64,000 bases of DNA from Fimbriiglobus ruber (GTDB taxonomy: Bacteria; Planctomycetota; Planctomycetia; Gemmatales; Gemmataceae). The position numbers and the translations under genes were made by a program. This document shows positions 2,134 through 48,049 of this stretch, one piece after another. Each line of letters begins with the position of its first letter. Position 1 is the stretch's first letter. The stretch covers positions 790,712 to 854,711 of the forward strand of contig NZ_NIDE01000017.1 of the NCBI RefSeq assembly GCF_002197845.1, read 5' to 3'. The notes under the pieces are model-generated. The model had not been told where the DNA came from. It did no database searches and saw nothing but the letters and a program-made list of their open reading frames with translations.

Positions 2134-3144
2134 TCAGGCAACCGACCAGAGAACCGTCGCCCCTAGGCTAATACTCATGACCCCAGTATTTGCAATCGAA
2201 AATGTTGCACCATAGTTTCCGTACGTGCCGGAACTCCAGATTGGGTTGAGCGTTCCGTCCGCGTTCGTGGGGCCATAAATAACGAGGTCTCCGTCCCACT
2301 GCATTATAGCCTCAATTGCGTTCTGTCCAAAAGTGCCTGAACTCCAAGCGGCTATGCCTGTCTGGGTGTTATATTCTACTAGATTACCGTCCGCCTGAAG
2401 AGTTAGTTGATACAGGCCGTTGGCCGAGTATATTGACTGACCTGGGGTGAGAGACAAGACTCGCGCCGGCATACCGCCCTGTGTCCTGGTGGCCCAGATT
2501 GGGGTGTTCACATTATTGATGACATCATAGATTACCAGGTTGCCGTCGTCCTGTAAGGTTAAATACGCGCCGGGATACCCACTAGTGATAGAATTCCAAG
2601 TGGCGCCACTCGGCCCGTAAACGACCAAGTTCCCATCCCCTTGCATAACGACGTCCGTGGCGGGTTGAGAAGTACGAGACGCCCACAATGCATTATAAAA
2701 CTTGTTGTAAAGCACAAAGTTCCCGTCGGGCTGGAGTGTCACCCAGTAGTAGCCATTCGGCGAGACCAGAAATTGACCGGGAGTCAGCAATTGGTATGGC
2801 GTTAATGAGGATGACACGGGGGCAAGTGAGTAAACGCTAACACCTCCACCTTCGTAGTCTACGTAATTGCCACCTTCGTTGTCCGAGTAAGTGTTGTTGC
2901 CCGCATACGCCGTCGAGGGCGATAAGACAACAATTGCTTCGCTGCTGCCAGTACCATTATTAATGGCTTGCAACCTGCTCTTATCTGCATTGTTATTTTG
3001 TACAAATGTATTTGCATAAATAAGAGCGTCTCCGTTCGGGCCAGTTGCCGTGCTAACTACGACCGCCTCTCCGTTTAGCCCTCCGGCTGAATTATAAGCG
3101 AACTGATCTTGCGTGATAACTGCGTTTGCAGACAGAACGGCCAC
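2134..3144 (-). pseudogene. C-terminal part of a broken surface protein: bulb-type lectin repeats
   Basis: This frame encodes at least five copies of the mannose-lectin motif QxDxNxVxY (QPDGNFVLY, QGDGNLVVY, QDDGNLVIY, QADGNLVEY, and QWDGDLVIY with N changed to D). That is the hallmark of beta-prism bulb-type lectin domains that bind sugars outside the cell. It has no signal peptide or convincing start. It continues, after one single-base frameshift near 3170-3185, the reading frame of the beta-helix region upstream, so it is best read as the last third of the gene that starts at 5673. Base composition is less GC-rich than the flanks. Confidence 0.8.
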
Positions 3145-3782
3145 CCCTCCGCCGCCTCCACCACCAATGTAGTTCGTGAATCCGATCCAATTTTGGTCTG
3201 ATTATACGATATTGTACTGTCAGTTATAACAGAATGAGTAAAAGGAGCATGAAAGGTATTGACACCAGAATTACCAAGCTCGTTCAGATCAATTCCTCCA
3301 CCAGTCCCACCGGCATTGCTGTCTCCGGAAGCCGTAACATTGCCGCCCTGCGCTATATTGGTTGTGACCAACGAGCCTTGCATGTGCAAGGATGCTTGAG
3401 ACGTGCAAATACCGCCGCCGTTGCCGCCGCCCCCTATGTTGCCATTAATATCGTCCATTCCAACCCCGCCCTCTGCCGTATTGTTCTCTACAGTCGACGA
3501 GATTACATTCAGCACGGTATTCGATGAAGGCGTTCCTTCGGCGTAAAGTCCCCCTCCGTATGCCGATCCTGCGTCACCAGCTGGCGAGGGGCCACCTTGC
3601 GCGACATTTTCATTAATAGTAGCACCATTGAACGTAGCTGTGCCCCCCTCAAAACTAGCCCCCCCACCGAGACCATCAGCTGTGGTTGGGCTGCTTGGAT
3701 CACCTGAATAACCCTGGCCGAAGGATTCGCCACCCTCCGCGTAATTCGTGGCAATAGTGACTGTATTGCCTGTGACGATTGA
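3145..3782 (-). pseudogene. Middle part of the broken surface protein: Gly/Asn-rich beta-helix repeats
   Basis: On the minus strand the frame from about 3779 down to about 3177 reads IVTGNTVTIATNYAEGG and then many GGG-x-Y/F and NNTAEGG-like turns, as in right-handed parallel beta-helix (Pectate-lyase-like) exoproteins. At the left it is cut by the IS at the TGA target duplication. At the right it loses frame: the continuing protein (FTNYIGGGGGGGVAVLS) is in another frame, and one missing base near 3170-3185 explains this. Confidence 0.78.
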
Positions 3783-4734
3783 GAGGCTGTCCGAAAAGTG
3801 CCCTTGCTGTAAGTCGTGAGATTCCTTTAAGTTAGTCGCTCCTTCATCATTCAGGAGCGAGGTCATGGACGCGCCCGTTCGTAAACCGTATCTGACGGAT
3901 TTGACCGATGTCCAATGGGAGACCATCGAGCCCCTTCTGCCCGCCGCCCGGTTCGGAGGGCGGCCCCGGTCGGTCGACCTCCGGGAGGTGATGAACGCGA
4001 TCCTGTACGTGAACCGGACCGGGTGCCAGTGGTCCCTGCTCCCGCACGATTTCCCGGCCAAGAGTACGGTGTACGAATACTTCGCCCAGTGGCGGGATGA
4101 CGGCACCTGGCAACACCTCCTGGATGTCCTCCGGGAGGGGTATCGGGAGGTCCATGCTCCGAGTCACGAGCCGACCCCGAGCGCCGCGAGCATCGATAGT
4201 CAGTCGGTCAAGGGGACCGAGCATGCGGGTGGGAACGGGTATGACGCGGGCAAGAAAATCCAGGGCCGGAAGCGGTCGATCGTGGTCGACACGCTCGGGT
4301 TGTTGATGACCGTGGCGGTCACCGCCGGGCACGTCGACGATGCGGCCGCGGCCCCGTCCGTGCTCGAATCGTTGGACCGTGAGGCGTACCCGCGGTTGAA
4401 GGTCGTATGGGCCGACGGGAAGTACCACAACCATGCCCTGAACGGGTGGAAGGACGGTCATCCGGAACTCAGATGGGAACTCGTCATCGTCCGCCGGCCG
4501 GACGGGGCGAAGGGGTTCGTCCTGTTGCCCAAGCGGTGGGTGGTGGAGCGGACCTTCGGGTGGCTCGGTCGCGCCCGCAGGCTAAGTCGGGACTACGAAC
4601 GAAATACTAGTTCTAGTGAATCTATGGTTAAAGTGCGGTCGATTCAATTGATCCTCAATCGCATGGACCCCAAAAAGTGTTATCCCCCATTTAAATATAG
4701 AGTTGCATCAAAATAGTACTTCCCAGACAGGCTC
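3783..4734 (+). mobile_element. IS5-type insertion sequence (952 bp) inside the surface-protein gene
   Basis: Both ends are visible. The left end GAGGCTGTCCGAAAAGT (from 3783) matches the inverted right end GAGCCTGTCTGGGAAGT (from 4734). The flanks carry a 3-bp target duplication, TGA at 3780-3782 and 4735-4737. It holds one DDE transposase. The 3-bp TNA-type duplication and the transposase type fit the IS5 family (IS1031/IS427-like groups). Removing the element and one TGA rejoins the host frame exactly. Confidence 0.92.
3865..4716 (+). CDS. IS5-family DDE transposase
   Basis: A 283-residue transposase. The N-terminus (LTDVQWETIEPLLP, then NRTGCQWSLLPHDFP) is the IS5/IS1031-type DUF4096 helix-turn-helix. 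The DDE core is seen as SIDSQSVKG (first Asp), VWADGKYHN (second Asp) and RRWVVERTFGWL-like KRWVVERTFGWL (Glu). An AGGAGCGAGG ribosome site lies just before the ATG. The reading frame is complete, so the element may still be mobile. Confidence 0.93.
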   Translation: MDAPVRKPYLTDLTDVQWETIEPLLPAARFGGRPRSVDLREVMNAILYVNRTGCQWSLLPHDFPAKSTVYEYFAQWRDDGTWQHLLDVLREGYREVHAPSHEPTPSAASIDSQSVKGTEHAGGNGYDAGKKIQGRKRSIVVDTLGLLMTVAVTAGHVDDAAAAPSVLESLDREAYPRLKVVWADGKYHNHALNGWKDGHPELRWELVIVRRPDGAKGFVLLPKRWVVERTFGWLGRARRLSRDYERNTSSSESMVKVRSIQLILNRMDPKKCYPPFKYRVASK

Positions 4735-5673
4735 TGAGTTGCCGCCGAAAAGTCCGCCGCCGTGGGCATAACCACTTGCCGTTATTCCATAAGTAGGCGA
4801 ATTTTTATCTGTGCTTCCGGCAAGGCCACCGTACGCTTGATTACTCGTAATCTTCACGGTATTCATAGTCAGATTGGACGCATTCATGGCAGCGATACCG
4901 CCGCCATCTCCTTCTCCCGCTTGGACTATGGGTGTATTATTTGTTAGATTCTTAGCATAGATTGGAAGTGTTACAATGTAATCTGCGTTGCCACCGACTG
5001 CTTTGTTGTTTTCAATCACGTCATTGTTTAGGCTTACAATTGATTCGTCTGTGAGGATTCCACCTCCAAATCCTTCTCCGTAATCAAAAACTGAATTCGT
5101 GAGATCCGCATCCGCGGGATTAGCAATGGTGCCTCCGAGCCCATTCTCAACGGTAAACCCGTTGAGTGTAAGGGAAGCCGAGCCGGCACCCGGAACGTCA
5201 CCAGTAACAAAAACGCCTCGGTAACTATTACTGCCGTCAATTGTAGTCTGATTCAACGACGGATCTGACGCGCCCCAGTTGTCGCCCCCTGGGAAGCCCC
5301 CTTGTATTGTAATATTCACAGGCGTCGAACCAGAATACGGATACACTTCGACGACGGCGCTAACCCCAGCCGTGCTGAATGCGGCATTGGCCGCCGACGG
5401 TGTGTATTGGTAATCGCCCTTTGCGACATCAATCGTGGACGGTCCGGACGCGCTTGCGGCAAGCGCCAGGTTCACCGCTGCTTGGATCGATTTCAGAGGC
5501 GAAGACGATACGGTTCCCGCATTCAAGTCATTACCGGAATTCACATCGACGTAATAAGTCGACGGTACGATCCGATCGTCAAGATGCAGGCAGTGCAAAC
5601 GAGTCGCGCACCGAACCGATTTGCCGCAAACGCTTTTTTTATCGCCACGGACGCCGAAGATGTTGCTAAGCAT
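4708..5673 (-). pseudogene. N-terminal part of the broken beta-helix surface protein
   Basis: The gene starts at ATG 5673 with AAGGA about 8 bases upstream. The first 40 residues include LDDRIVPSTYYVD, close to the LEDRxVPS-type N-terminal motif common on large exported planctomycete proteins. After that come SGNDLNAGT and beta-helix repeats. The host sequence runs to TCA at 4735-4737; the last eight codons (PVWEVLF and stop) belong to the IS end. Rejoined with the middle and C-terminal parts, the original protein would be about 860 residues: beta-helix followed by lectin domains. Confidence 0.82.
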
Positions 5674-17889: not shown

Positions 17890-18579
17890 ATGCCCCGTAT
17901 CACCGCCCTCGCCCTACTCGCCGCAATCGTCACCCTGACTATGGCCGACACCGCCAGTGCCTTCGGCCATCGCCGATACCAGTACCAGTACCAAGGCCCA
18001 ACCTGCTACTCGCTCCCGGTCTACGTCCCGGTCCCGTATGCTGACCCCTGCGGCCAACCGGCTTGGCTGGTGGGCGATCAGACCCCCGTCATTGGCGGGA
18101 TCGTGACGGTCGACGCGAGCCAAGGCGTCCAGGGAGGAACCCAAACCGCGGCGACCGAGCCGACCCCCGCCGAACTGGCGAACTGGCAGAAGATGCTAGA
18201 CGCCAAGTACGTCACCCCGGAGCAACTGGTCGACTACAAGAAGGCCAACGCCGCCGAACGGGCCAAGTTCTACGCCGACTTCATGAAGGCCCAGCCGACA
18301 GACGCCGAGATAGCGAACTGGAATGAGATGCTCAAGGAAAAGTACGTGACGGCAGCCCAACTGACCGAGTACAAGAAGGTCAGCACCGCCGAACGGGCCA
18401 AGTTCTACGCCGACTTCAAGAAGGCTCAGCCGACAGACGCCGAGATGGCGAACTGGGCGGAAATGGTGAACGCCAAGTACGTCACCTCGGAGCAACTGGC
18501 TGACTTCAAGAAGGCCAGCACCGCCGATCGGGCCAAGTTCTACGCCGACTTCAAGAAGGCTAAGAAGGACGACAAGTAA
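17890..18579 (+). CDS. Exported protein with three 45-residue repeats
   Basis: A 229-residue protein. ATG 17890 has GGAGG 9-13 bases upstream and a signal peptide (ITALALLAAIVTLTMADTASA). A Tyr/Pro-rich linker follows, then three tandem repeats from about residue 92: each has PTxAExANWxxM, then AKYVT or EKYVT, then QLxxYKK or QLxDFKK, then ERAKFYADF (DRAKFYADF in the third). Helical, highly charged repeats suggest a binding or structural role. I recognise no family. A GC-rich palindrome follows the stop. Confidence 0.8.
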   Translation: MPRITALALLAAIVTLTMADTASAFGHRRYQYQYQGPTCYSLPVYVPVPYADPCGQPAWLVGDQTPVIGGIVTVDASQGVQGGTQTAATEPTPAELANWQKMLDAKYVTPEQLVDYKKANAAERAKFYADFMKAQPTDAEIANWNEMLKEKYVTAAQLTEYKKVSTAERAKFYADFKKAQPTDAEMANWAEMVNAKYVTSEQLADFKKASTADRAKFYADFKKAKKDDK

Positions 18580-18591
18580 CTTGTGCCGGTT

Positions 18592-18617
18592 GCGGCGGCC
18601 GGCCGGCCGGCCGCCGC
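18592..18617 (+). terminator. Perfect 26-bp GC palindrome after the repeat gene
   Basis: GCGGCGGCCGGCC pairs with GGCCGGCCGCCGC, 12 bases after the stop at 18579. No T-run follows, so a terminator role is inferred from position. Confidence 0.55.
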
Positions 18618-18828
18618 GGCCGCGTGTGGAACGACTTGAGAGTCGAAAAAATCTCGTCCGACTGACAGATCGTAATTCTTTCGATAGTCCAAGTGCCTAG
18701 CCATTTTATTCTCGGCGAAGGGCTGCCTTCTGCCCGCCACAAAACACCGTTGCCCGTAGGTGTGCTGCCGCACCCGCAAACCTCACTCCTGTATTACTCA
18801 CACAGTGTCGCCGCATCAGGAGACTCGC

Positions 18829-21357
18829 ATGACGGCTGTTCAGAAATGGCTGGCCACCCCAGCCACCGCGCTGCTTTTCTGGCTCACCCCGCCGATCCTC
18901 GCCAATAACAACCCCGGCGGCGGGGGCCAGCCGGGTGGCAGGCTCCAAGGCGGTGGCGGTCAGCCCGCTGGTGGGGGCGGTCTCCACCCGGCTAACGGCG
19001 GTCTCCATCCGGCCGGCGGCGGGACTACCGGGTTCCACCCGGCCGGCGGCGGGGGGATGCACCCAGCCGGCGGCGGGGGGACGCCCGGCCTTCATCCGGC
19101 TGGTGGGGGTGGTTTCCACCCGGCCAACGGCGGACTCCACCCGGCCAACGGCGGGACTACCGGACTTCACCCGGCCAACGGTGGGACCACCGGACTCCAC
19201 CCGGCCAACGGCGGGACCACCGGACTCCACCCGGCCAACGGCGGGACCACCGGTCTCCACCCGGCCGGCGGCGGGACCACCGGGCTCCACCCGGCCAACG
19301 GCGGGACCACCGGACTCCACCCGGCCGGCGGCGGGACCACCGGACTCCACCCGGCCGGCGGCGGGACCACCGGACTCCACCCGGCCAACGGCGGGACTAC
19401 CGGACTTCACCCGGCCAACGGCGGGACTACCGGACTCCACCCGGCCAACGGCGGGACCACCGGACTCCACCCGGCCAACGGCGGGACCACCGGTCTCCAC
19501 CCGGCCGGCGGCGGGACCACCGGGCTCCACCCGGCCAACGGCGGGACCACCGGACTCCACCCGGCCGGCGGCGGGACCACCGGACTTCACCCGGCCAACG
19601 GTGGGACTACCGGGCTCCACCCGGCCAACGGCGGGACCACCGGTCTCCACCCGGCCGGCGGCGGGACCACCGGACTCCACCCGGCCGGCGGGACCACCGG
19701 TCTCCACCCGGCCGGCGGCGGGACCACCGGACTTCACCCGGCCAACGGTGGGACTACCGGGCTCCACCCGGCCAACGGCGGGACCACCGGTCTCCACCCG
19801 GCCGGCGGCGGGACCACCGGGCTCCACCCGGCCAACGGCGGGACCACCGGACTCCACCCGGCCGGCGGCGGGACCACCGGACTTCACCCGGCCAACGGCG
19901 GGACTACCGGGCTCCATCCGGCCAACGGCGGTCTCCACCCGGCCGGCGGTGGGGGGCTGCGGCCAGCCAACAGCGGGTTGAATCCTTCTCCGACCCGATC
20001 CCCGCAAGCCATCGGGGCGGCCAAAGCGGCGGCCGAGCAACGCGCCCAGCGGGTGAATCAGCTCAACCCGGACCAGAAATCTAAGTTCAACAATCTCCAT
20101 CAGATCGCCGACAAAAACCGGACGGGCGCCCTCAGGCCGAACAATACCGGCGGGCTAGCCAAAGCCGGCGGTCAGAAGCCGATCGTGGAACCGAAGAAAT
20201 CTCAGGCGGCCCAGGATCTAGCCAAGGCCGGCCAGAACAACCCGGTCCTCAAGAAGCAACTCACCGACATCACGAAGAAGGGAACGACCAAGGGCGACAT
20301 CGCCAAAGCCGGTGGCGGGGACAAGACTCTCCAGGCCAAACTGAACCAGGCGACCAAGGCCGGTGGCCTCGGGCTGACAGACAAGCAATACCAGACGCTC
20401 GCGGCACTGGCCAACAATCCGAAGTTGGCCCCCGCGGCGCAGCAGGCTCTCAAAGACTACCTCGAAGGGAAGACGCTCACCCCGGCGGAGGTGACCGCCC
20501 TCCAGAAGGGCATGGGCAAGCTGCCCGCGAACGACATCAAAGATATCGCCGCCCTTGCCGCGGCGAACGCCGACATCCGGCAGCAGAGCCAGACGCTGGC
20601 AGCCAACAGTACCCTCGCCAGCGTGCTGAGCAACTTGGGCGGGGGGCCGGGGGGCGGCGGGATTCCGGGCGGCGGGCCGGGGCTGAACCCGAACCTGATC
20701 GCCGGCGGCATCCTCGGCATCGTCGGTAACCTGACCGCCAACGGCGGGGGTGGGTTCCCCGGGGGCGGGGGGGGCGTCCCGGGCGGGGACAACGGCGGGG
20801 GATACTTCCCGGTCGTCAGCCCGACCGTGTTCGTCCCGAACGACCCGAACGTCCAGTTCGCGTCCGACGTAGTGATCCCGGACGCGTCCGGGATCGCCCT
20901 CGGCATCACCCCCGATTACACGGGTCCGGTGAGTAACTCCCTCCCGCTGACCGAGGAGGGGGACGTGGACGTCCAATTTGTCCTGGCCACCCAGGACGCG
21001 TCCCCATGGCAGTCCACCCGGTACGTCCGACTCGGGAATGCGACCGCCAAGCCGATGACGTTCTACGTCCAGTACGAGGCTCCGGGCCAGGACGGGGGCA
21101 CGAGGTGGTATCCGACCAACCCGGCCGATGGCGACGACGCCCTCAAGGTGGAAGTCGCCCCGGGCACGACCCTCGACCTGATGGATGGGGACTGGCGGGT
21201 GAACGCCACCCGGGTCCGGGTCTGGTCGGACAACGGGGAGGTGGTGTTCGACGCCTTCAAGAGCCGCGACCTGCCACTCGTGCCGGAAAGCGACGAAGAT
21301 GGCAACGCCCGCTACCGGGCGGCCAACATCGAAGTGTTCGAGATCACCCCCCGCTGA
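18829..21357 (+). CDS. Large exported Gly/Pro-rich repeat protein
   Basis: An 842-residue protein. ATG 18829 has CAGGAGA about 8 bases upstream, and the first 26 residues are a signal peptide (ATALLFWLTPPILA). Residues about 30-380 are low-complexity: GGxHPA variants, then about 26 tandem copies of the decapeptide GGTTGLHPA(N/G). A helical, Lys/Ala/Gln-rich middle follows (PDQKSKFNNLHQIADKNRT). After a second Gly-rich linker a folded C-terminal domain of about 165 residues contains VRLGNATAKPMTFYVQYEA and TRVRVWSDNGEVVFDAF. The repeats look like a wall-spanning or fibrous stalk and the end like a beta-rich domain. Function unknown. Confidence 0.82.
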   Translation: MTAVQKWLATPATALLFWLTPPILANNNPGGGGQPGGRLQGGGGQPAGGGGLHPANGGLHPAGGGTTGFHPAGGGGMHPAGGGGTPGLHPAGGGGFHPANGGLHPANGGTTGLHPANGGTTGLHPANGGTTGLHPANGGTTGLHPAGGGTTGLHPANGGTTGLHPAGGGTTGLHPAGGGTTGLHPANGGTTGLHPANGGTTGLHPANGGTTGLHPANGGTTGLHPAGGGTTGLHPANGGTTGLHPAGGGTTGLHPANGGTTGLHPANGGTTGLHPAGGGTTGLHPAGGTTGLHPAGGGTTGLHPANGGTTGLHPANGGTTGLHPAGGGTTGLHPANGGTTGLHPAGGGTTGLHPANGGTTGLHPANGGLHPAGGGGLRPANSGLNPSPTRSPQAIGAAKAAAEQRAQRVNQLNPDQKSKFNNLHQIADKNRTGALRPNNTGGLAKAGGQKPIVEPKKSQAAQDLAKAGQNNPVLKKQLTDITKKGTTKGDIAKAGGGDKTLQAKLNQATKAGGLGLTDKQYQTLAALANNPKLAPAAQQALKDYLEGKTLTPAEVTALQKGMGKLPANDIKDIAALAAANADIRQQSQTLAANSTLASVLSNLGGGPGGGGIPGGGPGLNPNLIAGGILGIVGNLTANGGGGFPGGGGGVPGGDNGGGYFPVVSPTVFVPNDPNVQFASDVVIPDASGIALGITPDYTGPVSNSLPLTEEGDVDVQFVLATQDASPWQSTRYVRLGNATAKPMTFYVQYEAPGQDGGTRWYPTNPADGDDALKVEVAPGTTLDLMDGDWRVNATRVRVWSDNGEVVFDAFKSRDLPLVPESDEDGNARYRAANIEVFEITPR
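19141..19930 (+). repeat. 30-bp coding tandem repeat array with 240-bp higher-order unit
   Basis: The unit GGCGGGACCACCGGACTCCA plus CCCGGCCAAC is repeated about 26 times, with codon variants (AAC or GGC at the last position; ACC/ACT; CTC/CTT). Bases 19141-19380 and 19381-19620 are nearly identical blocks of eight units. One unit near 19690 has lost a Gly codon. Confidence 0.93.
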
Positions 21358-21381
21358 CGGGGTGGCGGTGACAAGACAGTC

Positions 21382-21423
21382 CGGCGCGGGCCGGGCGCCC
21401 GAAGAGGTGTCCGGCCCGCGCCG
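21382..21423. terminator. GC-rich hairpin between convergent genes
   Basis: CGGCGCGGGCCGG (21382-21394) pairs perfectly with CCGGCCCGCGCCG (21411-21423). It sits between the stop at 21357 and the stop at 21425 of the opposite gene, so it can serve both. Confidence 0.7.
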
Positions 21424-21424
21424 T

Positions 21425-23101
21425 TCACCTGTCTAAATCTTTTGCCTCCTCCGGGCTGAGGAGTTCGTCGCCGTCGCGGTCGAGCTTACGGAACAACGCG
21501 ATCGGGCCGAGGAATTCGCGGAGGGATACGTCGCCGTCGCCGTTCCGGTCCATTTTTTCGAACCACTCGGGGCCGCTGGCTCGCGCCGGCCGGCTCGCCA
21601 TGTCCGTAACACGCGGAGTGCGAAGCGGGACGACGAGGGTGATCGATTCGACTTCCGCCCGGACGATCACCCGCCGCGGAAGACTGGCCGGGCTGATGTT
21701 GCCGTCCCGGTCGGCGTAAGACTTCAGCACAGCGGCCGCCTCAACCAGTTCGCGGGGCGTAAGCCGGCCGTCGCCGTCCTTGTCTAATAGCTCGAAGAGG
21801 CCGTTCCCCTCGTCGACGAACCGGACATTCACGCGGCACCCGACCAGTGGGGCGAGGAGTTTCAGGGCCGCTTCGGCTTCTTTCGCCGGATCGAGTTTGC
21901 CGTCGGCGTTCCGGTCGGCGAAATCGAACAGTGCGAGCGCGAGAGGGTCACTTTCGATCGCCTTCCGGGCGACGGGCCCGCCGTCTTTGGCCAGGTCTTT
22001 CAGTCGCTTGCGGAGGCCGTTGGCTTGTTCGTCCCAGGCCGCGCGAAGCGATGGCCGGTCGTCGCGGGGCCGTTCGAAGCGGAAGAAAGTACCCGGCCAC
22101 GCGGCCACGACTGGGCCGTCTGGTTTCGTGGTGATTTGTGCCCCGCGTGTTCCCGGCGAAGGTGCGGACCACCGGGCCGCCTGATCGGGTGGGCTGAACG
22201 ACAGCGCGAGTTCCGCGGCCGGCGATTGGCGGAGCCATTCCGCCAGTTCGGCCGTATCGAGGCGGCCATTCCCGTCCTTGTCGAGCGCCGCGAAGGTTGC
22301 CGCGTCGGCGCCGAATTCAGCCCGTGTCAGGGCCGTGGCCCGCGCGGACCCGCGGGTCGTGAGCAGGTACTTCACCGCACGGTCGTCGTCCGCCGGGAGG
22401 AAGAGGATGTCGGGCGACGCGGAGCCCGCCTCGGGCGTCGCGCGCATGCCGAGCGCTACGGGGGTGCGAACAGCTGCCGTGCTGACGGCACGCCCCAACA
22501 ACTCCGGGCCGGACAGAATTTCGTCTTCGTTAACGTCCAGAATCGCGAGGCGTTCGCGGGCAGTCTTCAGTTCGCCGGGCGAGATCTTGCCGTCTTTGTC
22601 GGCGTCGAGGTGCCGGAACAGGGCGGCCGAGAGGGCGGCCGAGTCGGTCGGGCCGGTGACGCCGCTCAGGTCAATCGCCCCGGCCCCGGCAGTGCGGATC
22701 GCTTCGGCGAACGCCGCCCGGGTGACGTTCTCGTCCCGCTTCGGGAACGTGAGCTGAATGGGCGAAGTGGTCATCCCTTCCTGGTCGATGCCGAGCATGA
22801 TGTCCCGGCCTCGCCGCAGCGCCGGCGGTGCCAGCAGGGCTCGCTCGGCCTGGTCCAGCACGCCGTCGCCGTTCCGGTCGCAAAAGGCGAAGAGCGCGTC
22901 CACGGCGGCAGCCCACCCGGCGTCGACCGGCTTGCCGTCGATCGCGACGTGCAGGCGAACCCGGTAAGGCCCGCCGGGACCGAAGTAAACGACGTCCCGG
23001 ACGCTTCCGGCAACCGGCGCGGGAGCGGGTTCCGCTGCGGCGAGGGAGACCACTGCCAGGATCACCGCCGTTAGGGTTGTCCCAATCGTCCGGGTGGTCA
23101 T
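21425..23101 (-). CDS. Exported EF-hand calcium-binding protein
   Basis: A 558-residue protein with a signal peptide (TLTAVILAVVSLAAAEPAP). At least six EF-hand-like loops are seen, in order: DRNGDGVLDQAE, DADKDGKISPGE, DVNEDEILSGPE, DKDGNGRLDTAE, DRNADGKLDPAK, DKDGDGRLTPRE, DRNGDGDVSL-type (MDRNGDGDVSLREF) and DRDGDELLSPEE. Its ATG (23101) overlaps the TGA of the DUF1501 gene (23098) as ATGA, so the two are almost surely translationally coupled. It probably works with DUF1501 and the DUF1549/1553 protein outside the cytoplasm. Confidence 0.85.
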   Translation of the reverse strand: MTTRTIGTTLTAVILAVVSLAAAEPAPAPVAGSVRDVVYFGPGGPYRVRLHVAIDGKPVDAGWAAAVDALFAFCDRNGDGVLDQAERALLAPPALRRGRDIMLGIDQEGMTTSPIQLTFPKRDENVTRAAFAEAIRTAGAGAIDLSGVTGPTDSAALSAALFRHLDADKDGKISPGELKTARERLAILDVNEDEILSGPELLGRAVSTAAVRTPVALGMRATPEAGSASPDILFLPADDDRAVKYLLTTRGSARATALTRAEFGADAATFAALDKDGNGRLDTAELAEWLRQSPAAELALSFSPPDQAARWSAPSPGTRGAQITTKPDGPVVAAWPGTFFRFERPRDDRPSLRAAWDEQANGLRKRLKDLAKDGGPVARKAIESDPLALALFDFADRNADGKLDPAKEAEAALKLLAPLVGCRVNVRFVDEGNGLFELLDKDGDGRLTPRELVEAAAVLKSYADRDGNISPASLPRRVIVRAEVESITLVVPLRTPRVTDMASRPARASGPEWFEKMDRNGDGDVSLREFLGPIALFRKLDRDGDELLSPEEAKDLDR

Positions 23102-24544: not shown

Positions 24545-25475
24545 GAAACCATCTCAGAAAGTATAATGTACCAGGGCAGGAGGTTACGGGAAATCGCGGA
24601 GCGAGTGTATGACGGCGGACAGAGAATCGATCCTTCCGACGATCTGGGAGGTATCCGATGATTTATGGGCGAGGATCGAACCGATCCTTGCGGCGGCCTG
24701 GCCTCGGCGAGACCCCCGTGGTCGGCATCACGCGGATTGGCGTAGGTGCCTGAACGGGATCATCTACCAGATGCGGACCGGGTGCCAATGGAATGCGTTG
24801 CCCAAGGTGCTGGGTGACGACAGCACGGTTCACCGTTGGTATCAACGCTGGTGTCGCTTGGGTGTGATGGAAAAGATCTGGGCGGATCTGGTCCAGACAT
24901 GTGATGATCTGGGGCAAGTCCATTGGGACTGGCAGAGCGCTGACGGGTGCATGGGGAAGGCCCGTCACGGCGGCGACCACATCGGCAAAAACCCAACGGA
25001 TCGAGGGAAAAACGGGACGAAGCGGAGCATCGTGGTGGACGAACAGGGTGGACCACTGGGGGTGGTCATTGACGGGGCGAATCGACACGATGCGAAGTTA
25101 TTGAAGGCGACGATCGAGGCGATCGTCATCGAGCGGCCGGATCCCAAAGAACACGAGCAACATCTGTGTTTGGATAAAGCGTACGATAATCCGTCCGGCC
25201 AGTCTGCGGCGAGTGAGGCCCAATACACCCCTCACATCCGCCGAATCGGCGAGGAGAAGACAACGGTCACGGCCAAGCACCCGGATGGCAAGCCGCGTCG
25301 TTGGGTGGTTGAGCGTACCCTGAGTTGGCTGAATCGTTGCCGAGCCATCTTGGTCCGTTATGCAAAAAACGGAAAGAATTATTTGGGCTTAGTCCAGTTA
25401 GCGTGTTCCTTGATCTGGTATCGTAGACTCTTCCGCCTCAATGGGTTAGGTTGACGCCTATTTTGAGATGGTTTC
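24545..25475 (+). mobile_element. IS5-type insertion sequence (931 bp) at a stop codon
   Basis: The ends GAAACCATCTCAGAAA (from 24545) and, inverted, GAAACCATCTCAAAAT (from 25475) match over the first 12 bases. A 3-bp duplication TTA stands at 24542-24544 and 25476-25478. The right TTA is the complement of the TAA stop of the DUF1549/1553 gene, so that gene is left intact. The element differs clearly from the one at 3783-4734. Confidence 0.9.
24609..25454 (+). CDS. IS5-family DDE transposase (second type)
   Basis: A 281-residue transposase with GGAG before ATG 24609. N-terminal DUF4096-type region: VSDDLWARIEPILAAAWP and YQMRTGCQWNALPKVLGDD. DDE core: QSADGCMGKARHGG (first Asp; the usual Asp-Ser/Gly), LCLDKAYDNP (second Asp) and RRWVVERTLSWLNR (Glu). 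The frame is intact. It is not a close copy of the transposase at 3865-4716. Confidence 0.93.
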   Translation: MTADRESILPTIWEVSDDLWARIEPILAAAWPRRDPRGRHHADWRRCLNGIIYQMRTGCQWNALPKVLGDDSTVHRWYQRWCRLGVMEKIWADLVQTCDDLGQVHWDWQSADGCMGKARHGGDHIGKNPTDRGKNGTKRSIVVDEQGGPLGVVIDGANRHDAKLLKATIEAIVIERPDPKEHEQHLCLDKAYDNPSGQSAASEAQYTPHIRRIGEEKTTVTAKHPDGKPRRWVVERTLSWLNRCRAILVRYAKNGKNYLGLVQLACSLIWYRRLFRLNGLG

Positions 25476-38228: not shown

Positions 38229-39062
38229 TTACTTCGCCGCGGACGCCAGTGGGTCGCGGGTCGAGGCGGCGGCCGCGATCAGCTTCGGGAAGGCCTCGTT
38301 CAGCGAGTCCCCGGCCCGAACGATCACGCGCTTCTGCTCGACTTCCGTCCGCCCGTTGACTTCGATTTCGGCCTTCATGTCGTAGAAGAACGATTCGCCG
38401 GCAACGAGGCTCGGGGTGTGGAACTGGCGGGTGGCGCCGGTCCCCTTGGTGAGCACACCGTCCACGTACAGCTTCGCGTCGGCCGGCAGTTCGACGGTCA
38501 ATTGGGCCGATTTTGCGGGTTCGACCGCCTTCACAACCACCACGGGCGCGGCCATTTCGGGAACGACAACGACCGGGGCAGCCGGGACTTCAACGACGCC
38601 GCTGATGACGGTGCCGATACAGCCACTGCTCATGACCGGGGCCGGAACCGAGCCGATGCAGCTCGACCCGTAGCAACTGCCGTAGCAGGAGCCATAGCTG
38701 CTGCCGTAACAGGAGCCGTAGCAACTGCCGTAGCACGAGCTATAGCTGCTGCCGTAGCACGAGCCGTAGCACGACCCGGAGTGGGTGAAGCACGACCGGA
38801 CGCGGGCACAGAAGGCGGCGACGTGCGGGCACCGCGGGCCGCCGTAGCAGGACGACCCGTAGCACGAAGAGCCGGAGCAGGACGACCCGTAGCACGAGGA
38901 GCCGTAACAGGACGACCCGTAACAGGACGACCCGTAGCACGAGGAGCCGTAGCAACTGCCGGTGCACGAGCCGGAGCAGCTTGCGTACGCGGGCGTCTGC
39001 CATCCGAACGCGGTCGCATCGGGCGCCCCGGCCACCGCGGTCATGAGAAGAATGCTGTACAT
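38229..39062 (-). CDS. Exported Cys/Tyr/Gly/Ser-rich repeat protein with a TIGR03000 domain
   Basis: A 277-residue protein. ATG 39062 begins a short signal-like segment (SILLMTAVAGAPDATAFG). Residues about 29-140 are repeats of CYGSS and CYGS, with dozens of cysteines. The end, VELPADAKLYVDGVLTKGTG with FFYDMKAEIEVNGRTEVE, is the planctomycete-specific TIGR03000 domain. The cysteines could crosslink it into the cell envelope; that is inference. Repeats cause an open antisense frame that is not a gene. Confidence 0.87.
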   Translation of the reverse strand: MYSILLMTAVAGAPDATAFGWQTPAYASCSGSCTGSCYGSSCYGSSCYGSSCYGSSCYGSSCSGSSCYGSSCYGGPRCPHVAAFCARVRSCFTHSGSCYGSCYGSSYSSCYGSCYGSCYGSSYGSCYGSCYGSSCIGSVPAPVMSSGCIGTVISGVVEVPAAPVVVVPEMAAPVVVVKAVEPAKSAQLTVELPADAKLYVDGVLTKGTGATRQFHTPSLVAGESFFYDMKAEIEVNGRTEVEQKRVIVRAGDSLNEAFPKLIAAAASTRDPLASAAK

Positions 39063-46535: not shown

Positions 46536-46820
46536 TTAAGGCATGTTCTTGTCTACGTCGAAAAGTTCGTCCCAAGCCCGGATCTCTAGCAGGCGGTCTG
46601 CCAGGTTGTGTAATTGAGACAGATCCGTACTTGCTTCTATTACTTTGATCACCGCGGCCGAAGGTGGGCCGAATAGTTGGCGTCCTAAACGTAAGATGCA
46701 CGCCCGCGCCTGGATTAGTCGTTCCTTGTTTTCTTCCATTGCAAAAACCCAAGCTCGATCAAGCAGGCAACGAGCGCACTCTCGTACCGCCAACCCGTCA
46801 CCACATACACTCTCGCCCAC
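46536..46820 (-). pseudogene. Second decayed copy of a DUF4351 C-terminus
   Basis: The minus strand carries ACILRLGRQLFGPPSAAV and LHNLADRLLEIRAWDELF, a diverged DUF4351 end. The sequence before it reads VYVVTGWRYESALVACLI in another frame, so a frameshift separates the two parts. It lacks the N-terminal nuclease part and is a relic downstream of the copy at 46830-47105. Confidence 0.7.
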
Positions 46821-46829
46821 GTCGCGGGT

Positions 46830-47105
46830 TCACTTGGTCTCAAGCAATTCGTCCCACCCGGCCGCATCGAGTATACGATCGCCGAGTTCTTCCAGTCGGG
46901 CCAAGTCGGTGATCGCCGCCAGCGATTCCGCCACTGCGACGGAGGGTGAGCCAAACTTCTTGCTGCCCAGGCGCAAGATCATCGCCCGCTCTCCCGCGAG
47001 GTGCCCCTTGACCTCGCCCCGGGCTTCCCCCCGGGCGAGAATGGCTTGATAGGTTGCCGATTCTTCCATTTGCTGCACCCCATCGAGTGCGGGGAACGAG
47101 CGCAC
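46830..47105 (-). pseudogene. First decayed copy of a DUF4351 C-terminus
   Basis: It contains LDGVQQMEESATYQAILARG and AMILRLGSKKFGSPSVAV, close to the end of the intact gene at 47159-48049. Upstream, MYVVTGWRYEGALVP is in a different frame, so it begins with a frameshift at the same position as the other copy. It has no N-terminal domain. Confidence 0.75.
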
Positions 47106-47158
47106 CCTCGTACCGCCAACCCGTCACCACATACACTCTCGCCTACAACATCGCAGTT

Positions 47159-48049
47159 TTACTCGATGCCGAGAAGGTCATCCCACCCAACCGCGTCGAG
47201 CAGGCGGTCGCCGAGGTCTTCCAATCGAGCTAGGTCGGTGATGGCCGCCAGCGCCGCCGTTACCTTGGTGGGAGGTGGGCCAAACTTCTTGCTGCCCAGG
47301 CGCAAGATCATCGCCCGTTCTCCCGCGAGGTGCCCCTTGACCTCGCCCCGGGCTTCCCCCCGGGCTTCCCCCCGGGCTTCCCCCCGGGCGAGAATGGCTT
47401 GATAGGTCGTCGATTCTTCCATTTGCTGCACCCCATCGAGTAGGCGGGCAACGAGCACATCATTGTACCGCAAGCCCATCAACACGTACGTACTCGCCCA
47501 CAACTTCGCGGCCAACGGGTCGTCGGCCTCGGCCCGGATTCGCTCGTCCATCCGCTGAACGATCCCGGGCAACGCGGCCTCGTCGGGGGCTGCGAGTGGT
47601 GCCAGCGGCATCATGGCGAGCGCGCCGGATAAGAAGTCGTCCGGCGGGCACTCCCAGACGCGGATCACCCGATACTTGTACACCCACTCCGGGCCGACGG
47701 GCGGCCGCACCACCCACGAACCGGTCACAGCCGTCATGTTCGCGGCCGACCGCAGCAGGAACACGACCGACGACACCAATAACTCGTGCCGACAGTACAG
47801 CAACGTATTGTACCGGAGCAGGCGGGGCACGAACCAGGGGTCGGTGTTCGCCTGGAATTCCAGGTGCAATATCCACGGCTCGGGGGCGCCGACGCGGATC
47901 ACCTTGTCCGCTTCGGCGGTCACGGTCGACACGTCGGCGTCGACGACTGTGACCGGGCCGGGCGGGGGCGCACTCGTGAGGTACGCGACCCACCCGGCCG
48001 GGTCGGCTTCGAGCAGGTCTTTGCTCGTCGCGTCGAACGGCTTGGACAC
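47159..48049 (-). CDS. Rpn/PD-(D/E)XK nuclease-like protein with DUF4351
   Basis: A 296-residue protein of the Rpn/RpnA-like, transposase-related class often found in multiple copies. The N-terminal part holds the nuclease-like core: VIRVGAPEPWILHLEFQANT (putative Glu and Gln of the ExQ motif). A Gly/Glu/Ala/Arg repeat (GEARGEARGEARGEVKG) precedes the C-terminal DUF4351 (AMILRLGSKKFGPPPTKVTA, LEDLGDRLLDAVGWDDLL). Related proteins are recombination-promoting nucleases. Two tandem C-terminal copies follow it. Confidence 0.82.
   Translation of the reverse strand: MSKPFDATSKDLLEADPAGWVAYLTSAPPPGPVTVVDADVSTVTAEADKVIRVGAPEPWILHLEFQANTDPWFVPRLLRYNTLLYCRHELLVSSVVFLLRSAANMTAVTGSWVVRPPVGPEWVYKYRVIRVWECPPDDFLSGALAMMPLAPLAAPDEAALPGIVQRMDERIRAEADDPLAAKLWASTYVLMGLRYNDVLVARLLDGVQQMEESTTYQAILARGEARGEARGEARGEVKGHLAGERAMILRLGSKKFGPPPTKVTAALAAITDLARLEDLGDRLLDAVGWDDLLGIE

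What the first reader, a model, noticed from the sequence alone, without database searches (positions are those of the whole stretch)
18829..21357. Freshly expanded decapeptide stalk in an exported protein
About 26 copies of GGTTGLHPA(N/G) carry a 240-bp higher-order repeat (19141-19380 and 19381-19620 nearly identical), and a third partial copy pattern near 19590 and 19733. Such near-identity means very recent unequal exchange, so repeat number probably varies between strains. The flanking signal peptide and folded C-terminus imply a length-variable surface stalk.
Basis: partly seen in the sequence, partly recalled or inferred. Interest (0 to 1): 0.6.

Follow-up and report, generated by a model that had tools for sequence, protein, structure and literature searches.

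The report
Repeat tether on conserved planctomycete domain
A planctomycete bacterium appears to export a protein whose long, recently multiplied ten-residue repeat probably acts as a flexible tether for a conserved but uncharacterised end domain, and related bacteria carry the same end domain on unrelated repeats.

Summary
ORF 18829-21357 (842 aa) holds 26 contiguous GGTTGLHPA(N/G) units (19150-19926; one is 27 bp) between degenerate GGLHPA-type units. The 240-bp blocks match at 232/240; the longest exact repeat is 158 bp (mean 83, none as long in 1000 unit shuffles). Apart from the Asn/Gly switch, the base changes among the 25 full-length units are silent. The last ~129 residues are a conserved, predicted all-beta domain without a Pfam or NCBIfam match, found in 15 of 95 family genomes (own included). 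An ortholog (G102) has an unrelated octapeptide stalk; other relatives have ARPPV, IDPK or PKDKTVIT repeats. Outside the family, 6 of 9 matching genomes have the domain after trypsin and TPR. Two G023 paralogues share 80% of the domain, but their signal-plus-stalk parts are 317 and 185 residues.

Best reading: an exported beta-domain on a fast-evolving, replaceable, disordered spacer. Not shown: export itself, surface anchoring, a rigid stalk, or strain-to-strain variation. No second isolate was available; two same-genus genomes gave no domain match.

The parts
18829..18903 (+). putative signal peptide (MTAVQKWLATPATALLFWLTPPILA); boundary judged by eye
   Evidence: no signal-peptide program available
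18973..19149 (+). degenerate edge units (GGLHPAN, GGTTGFHPAG, GGGMHPAG, GGGTPGLHPAG and similar)
19150..19926 (+). 26 contiguous decapeptide units GGTTGLHPA(N/G)
19141..19380 (+). first copy of the 240-bp higher-order repeat (232 of 240 identical to the second)
19381..19620 (+). second copy of the 240-bp higher-order repeat
19690..19716 (+). 27-bp unit lacking one Gly codon
19927..19971 (+). degenerate edge units at the 3' end (GGLHPAG, GGGLRPAN)
19984..20640 (+). predicted helical middle segment; weak relative in G115, and in G102 only by pairwise comparison of the longer C-terminal half
20641..20814 (+). glycine-rich linker (limits by eye)
   Evidence: sequence
20968..21354 (+). conserved C-terminal beta-domain (last 129 residues)

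Best explanation
The gene encodes an exported protein (inferred) in which a conserved all-beta C-terminal domain (homology shown, fold predicted) is carried by a long, disordered Gly/Thr/His/Pro repeat followed by a short helical segment and a Gly-rich linker. The repeat most likely acts as a flexible spacer, setting how far the domain can reach from wherever the N-terminal part is held. It grew recently by unequal exchange or slippage of 30-bp units, in blocks of about 240 and 150 bp among others (the block pattern is shown, the process inferred), while selection kept the peptide (supported). In relatives the same domain is carried on unrelated repeats, so the spacer seems free to be replaced or remade while the domain is kept. 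What the domain binds is unknown; a role in the envelope or matrix is a guess.
For: DNA: 232/240 block identity and a 158-bp exact repeat, 0 of 1000 unit shuffles as long. Among the 25 full-length units only third positions of codons 1, 3, 5, 6 and 7 (all silent) and codon 10 vary; over all 26, codon 10 is AAC 16 times and GGC 10 times with no intermediate. Six silent changes to one replacement has P of about 0.003-0.005 if changes were independent. Domain: 15 of 95 family genomes and 24 of 347 class genomes, own included in both. Ortholog G102: 31% identity (106 of 339 columns), E 2e-34; own+G115 at support 97/93 and these with G102 at 91/90; but G102 has a KPSNPLGN octapeptide stalk. Other relatives: ARPPV (G096), 26-residue IDPK units (G032), TVITPKDK (G094), NVN (G023). 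G023 paralogues: domain 103 of 129 identical, signal plus stalk 317 against 185 residues. No secondary structure in the repeat in the single-sequence model.
Against: Signal peptide and location were not computed. The C-terminal model is only moderate (pLDDT 66, pTM 0.62, 4 sequences), and low pLDDT in a single-sequence model of a repeat is weak evidence of disorder. The selection test counts changes that may have spread by exchange and so are not fully independent. By my reading 11 of the 20 family matches have a stalk-like low-complexity region; 9 do not (G005 C256 and G080 C168 short, G115 unresolved, the others differently built), so a long repeat is not obligatory. The helical middle alone matched only G115 (E 7e-4) among 94 other family genomes, not G102. 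Array length comes from one assembly and could be miscounted there.
Confidence: 0.6

Rival explanations
1. The repeat is itself the working part: a histidine-rich, elastin- or silk-like polymer segment that binds metal or assembles into matrix fibres, with the C-terminal domain as an accessory.
For: The 333-residue stretch holds 34 His, 117 Gly and only one K/R/D/E residue; the decapeptide is kept while silent sites vary.
Against: Stalks of relatives with the same domain share neither the His nor the motif (KPSNPLGN, ARPPV, IDPK, PKDKTVIT), so a His-specific role is not conserved in the family. One relative (G029, L011) has a short His-containing Gly-rich region. The role could still be specific to this lineage.
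Confidence: 0.2
2. A variable-length surface protein of the Periscope kind, with copy number changing at the population level to expose or hide the end domain.
For: High DNA identity between repeats favours copy-number change; the Periscope paper reports the most extreme variation where repeat identity is highest (PMC8201768, passages). Paralogue stalks differ in length.
Against: Periscope repeats are described as folded domains of about 50-165 residues in cell-wall-attached proteins (PMC9704523, passages); this unit is 10 residues, predicted unstructured, in a protein without LPxTG or cysteine, and there are no population data.
Confidence: 0.15
3. Neutral low-complexity filler: a tandem array that expanded by slippage in a high-GC genome and is simply tolerated in an exported linker.
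For: The domain occurs with short or no repeats in some relatives; stalk sequence is not conserved between genera.
Against: All single-base variants among the 25 full-length units are silent. In G096 the pentapeptide is kept (lag-5 protein identity 82%) although the same codon recurs at only 24% of matched residues at lag 5 and 47% at lag 10. Both point to selection on the peptide.
Confidence: 0.15

Closest known systems
Periscope Proteins (SasG, Rib, Sgo_0707; PMC8201768 and PMC9704523, passages seen)
   Same: Tandem repeats of high DNA identity, likely to change number by recombination, carrying a non-repetitive end domain in an exported protein (export inferred here).
   Different: Ten-residue, predicted unstructured unit instead of a folded domain; conserved domain at the C-terminus instead of the N-terminus; no LPxTG or lipid anchor; no population data.
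Trypsin-TPR proteins of other Planctomycetia that end in the same domain (L066-L070, L091) and two in the family (L030, L036)
   Same: Homologous C-terminal domain.
   Different: Domain follows Trypsin_2 and TPR repeats instead of a low-complexity stalk.
Beta-sandwich folds, such as a T3SS secretin pilot protein (2yjl) and the pVHL beta-domain
   Same: Similar all-beta arrangement in the model (VIA-align Z 8.3, rmsd 2.5 over 88 residues for 2yjl_C; Z 6.9, rmsd 2.7 over 79 for pVHL 7khh_C).
   Different: No Foldseek match at E <= 0.001 (best 0.027) and no pVHL match in Pfam up to E 1. Unrelated chains (PepT2, perfringolysin O) score about the same, so this may be only a common arrangement.

Membership tests
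Periscope Proteins | tandem repeats with high DNA identity | tested here: met
   Adjacent-unit DNA identity 0.873 over the array; 240-bp blocks 232 of 240
Periscope Proteins | repeats are folded domains (about 50-165 residues) forming a rod | tested here: not met
   Unit is 10 residues; no secondary structure in the single-sequence model. The unit length alone fails the size range
Periscope Proteins | repeat number varies between strains | not testable with these tools
   No second strain held; the two same-genus genomes gave no domain match
Periscope Proteins | cell-surface attachment | tested here: inconclusive
   No LPxTG and no Cys in the protein; other ways of attachment and the location could not be tested
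C-terminal domain family defined here by alignments A1 and A3 | sequence homology along the domain, with conserved Asn, Gly and Tyr columns (N24, G66, Y116) | tested here: met
   Single-sequence match to G015 at E 5.5e-20; N24 invariant, G66 and Y116 at least 90% in 18 rows. The profile score of the own sequence (E 3.0e-46) is partly by construction
pVHL-like beta-domain | significant sequence or fold match | tested here: inconclusive
   No Pfam pVHL match up to E 1; Foldseek E of about 0.03-0.1, VIA Z of about 6.9

The most novel reading that the evidence does not exclude
An undescribed planctomycete beta-domain, found mostly at the end of trypsin-TPR proteins elsewhere in the class, has in this family repeatedly been placed on short-peptide stalks that are remade from scratch in each lineage, so that length and disorder, not sequence, are what selection keeps: an interchangeable-tether system.
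Probability: 0.35. Interest if true: 0.6.

Novelty: new variant of a known kind. Interest (0 to 1): 0.42.

Why it matters
If the reading holds, it gives a natural series in which one end domain is kept while the tether is swapped between unrelated 5-, 8-, 10- and 26-residue repeats, both young (this gene) and old (G096, synonymous codons largely diverged but peptide kept). That allows a direct test of whether exported spacers are selected for length and flexibility or for sequence. It also points to a domain that no Pfam or NCBIfam model matched in these scans.

Tried and rejected
Domain identity: Pfam, NCBIfam and PHROGs gave no credible family; the PDB sequence profile search gave nothing below E 0.6. 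Mobile or viral origin: no match of the last 165 residues in plasmids, nor of the last 445 in phages or viral contigs. The repeat elsewhere: a 100-residue piece of the array matched 3 other genomes of 58 at E 4e-5 to 9e-4; by eye these are other proteins or unlikely frames, so rejected. An adjacent-gene system: the exported-looking 229-aa neighbour matches only 2 of 94 other family genomes, weakly, and neither has the domain. His-specific metal function as the family role: rejected because most other stalks lack His. The missing gene in G002: WD40-, PSD- and DUF1501-like and EF-hand genes keep their order there (names recalled except EF-hand, tested), the stalk protein finds no match on that 12-kb stretch, and another ORF lies beside the EF-hand gene; this does not tell gain from loss. 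G115 as a stalk-less ortholog: rejected as proof, because its middle and domain lie in different frames and no clear start is seen; the draft contig may be faulty. Promoter scan: no sigma-70-type site in 18500-21600.

Dropped rows: of the 20 matches, 18 are in A3; left out are G095 (near-copy of G015) and G032 C491 (caspase-like by eye, no Pfam match). G011 (E 7e-4) was not used and gave no match. In the class search 6 of 9 genomes outside the family have Trypsin_2 plus TPR, one (G306) has TPR alone, and two (G049, G125; E 3e-9 and 8e-9) have neither and hold the match inside a long protein.

Organism: no call names the window's genome. Record titles of relatives read Planctomycetota bacterium, Singulisphaera sp. 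GP187 and Gemmataceae bacterium. The 12.36-Mb size suggests Fimbriiglobus ruber; that is recall, plus a passage in PMC7717043 that gives 12.4 Mb as the upper size, citing the F. ruber genome paper (that paper is not held). Literature searches; only listings were seen apart from passages of PMC8201768, PMC9704523 and PMC7717043. No held paper contains the four peptide words, which says nothing of papers outside that library.

Full report
What is there. The ORF at 18829-21357 encodes 842 residues. After a hydrophobic N-terminus that looks like a signal peptide by eye, it has degenerate GGLHPA-type units (18973-19149), 26 contiguous GGTTGLHPA(N/G) units (19150-19926), two more degenerate units to 19971, a predicted helical middle part, a Gly-rich linker, and a conserved C-terminal domain (20968-21354).

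Is it more than chance? The 240-bp blocks agree at 232 of 240 bases, and the longest exact repeat is 158 bp at spacing 240. Shuffling the order of the 26 units gave no exact repeat as long in 1000 trials and 3 of 1000 with as high an adjacent 240-bp identity. A coarser test on whole identical units was weaker (50 and 183 of 5000). A 119-bp exact repeat at spacing 147 also exists. So units spread in blocks, as unequal exchange or slippage would do.

How the units vary. Of 30 positions, only third positions of codons 1, 3, 5, 6 and 7, and the first two of codon 10, vary among the 25 full-length units. Codon 10 is AAC or GGC, two bases apart, with no intermediate, which suggests that two old variants were shuffled by exchange and not made anew by point mutation (inference). 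Counting distinct changes, six are silent and one replaces a residue; under independence this has P of 0.003-0.005. The edges of the array are diverged and the centre is homogeneous, a pattern expected of an array under exchange (inference).

The conserved domain. A single-sequence search with the last 165 residues matched 7 of 59 relatives, own genome included. One of these, G011 at E 7e-4, is doubtful and was not used. A nine-row profile matched 15 of 95 family genomes, and an 18-row profile 24 of 347 class genomes and 3 of 342 phylum genomes, all three in the same class; own included each time. In some searches at most 12 candidates of each genome were scored, so counts are lower bounds. 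The own genome has one copy (a second match at E 0.9 with stops is ignored). No curated family matched credibly. AlphaFold2 with four sequences gives ten strands, pLDDT 66, pTM 0.62. Foldseek finds nothing significant (best E 0.027). VIA-align gives Z 8.3 for a secretin pilot protein, then a plateau near 7 that holds PepT2, perfringolysin O and pVHL chains alike, so a common arrangement is the safe reading.

What carries the domain elsewhere. All 9 genomes outside the family with a match were examined: 6 have Trypsin_2 plus TPR repeats before a C-terminal domain (G251, G166, G247, G120, G356, G340), one has TPR without trypsin (G306), and two weak matches lie inside long proteins without a Pfam match (G049, G125). 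Two proteins in the family are also trypsin-TPR (G026, G080 C327). Of the 20 family matches, 11 have, by my reading, a low-complexity stalk-like region before the domain: the decapeptide (own), KPSNPLGN (G102, interrupted by Ns, so copy number unknown), ARPPV (G096), 26-residue IDPK units (G032), TVITPKDK (G094), NVN and similar (two in G023), and Gly-, Asn-, Thr- or Lys/Asp-rich (G005 C146, two in G029, G098). The other nine: short (G005 C256, G080 C168), unresolved (G115), domain near the N-terminus followed by another repeat without a Pfam match (G015, G095; for G015), two domains plus PASTA (G116), trypsin-TPR (two), caspase-like by eye (G032 C491).

Orthology and stalk replacement. Own and G102 align from the helical part to the end (31%, E 2e-34), although the helical middle alone does not find G102. 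A tree of 23 domains puts own with G115 (97/93) and these with G102 (91/90); 4 of 20 inner branches are starred and 12 are open, so deeper order is unknown. The clearest case of one orthologous protein with two unrelated stalks is therefore own against G102. G096 is not placed. Two G023 paralogues share 103 of 129 domain residues, but their signal-plus-stalk parts are 317 and 185 residues. This is the nearest thing to a length comparison that was available; it is between paralogues, not strains.

Two evolutionary ages. In this gene, with the 27-bp unit left out, the same codon recurs at 83% of matched residues one unit apart, no more than position-wise codon shuffling gives; higher values at 40, 80 and 90 residues are reached by 33, 82 and 10 of 500 shuffles. 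In G096 the peptide repeats at 82% identity at lag 5 while the same codon recurs at only 24% (lag 5, below its shuffles) and 47% (lag 10, above them), which suggests an older 30-bp unit. The G096 stalk is thus old and kept at the peptide level; this one is young.

Local context. In the same-genus genome G002 the WD40-, PSD- and DUF1501-like and EF-hand genes are in the same order (identities 32, 61, 75 and 39%), but the stalk gene is not beside them; another ORF is. G001 and G002 are 86-87% complete and have no domain match. Gain here or loss there cannot be told apart.

Mechanism. Shown: block-wise expansion pattern, a conserved domain, and different stalks on the same domain. Supported: selection on the peptide. 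Inferred: export, disorder, spacer function. Unknown: anchoring, ligand, population variation. I put the flexible-tether reading at 0.6.

Comparison with what is known. Periscope Proteins are the nearest concept (PMC8201768 and PMC9704523, passages). This protein would work in a comparable way if copy number varies, but the unit fails the folded-domain criterion, so it is not filed as a member.

Noticed in passing
17890-18579 (+): Exported-looking 229-aa protein directly upstream with nearly three 45-residue tandem repeats (135 bp, 18168-18561, 80% matches); weak relatives in 2 of 94 other family genomes.
   Followed up: partly
24609-25454 (+): Transposase-like ORF (by eye) between the DUF1501-like and PSD-like genes, whose counterparts are neighbours in the same-genus genome G002 (L089: one frame ends at 3800, the next opens at 3816), suggesting an insertion in this lineage.
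   Followed up: partly
38229-39062 (-): Small exported-looking protein rich in SCYGS repeats (12- to 48-bp DNA periods); a Gly/Cys-rich ORF of similar look lies about 1 kb from the stalk gene of relative G102 (L042:6085-6786).
   Followed up: no
3865-4716 (+): Transposase-like ORF (by eye) lying between pieces of an exported-looking gene on the other strand (ORFs 2134-3144, 3075-4106 and 4708-5673), as if it had interrupted it.
   Followed up: no
46769-47365: A 329-bp tandem duplication (1.8 copies, 84% matches) that overlaps the 3' end of ORF 47159-48049 (-).
   Followed up: no
L043:1479-4196 (G096): ARPPV-type stalk of about 395 residues whose synonymous codons are largely diverged at lag 5 (24% same codon) but more alike at lag 10 (47%), suggesting a 30-bp ancestral unit and long-term selection on the peptide.
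   Followed up: partly
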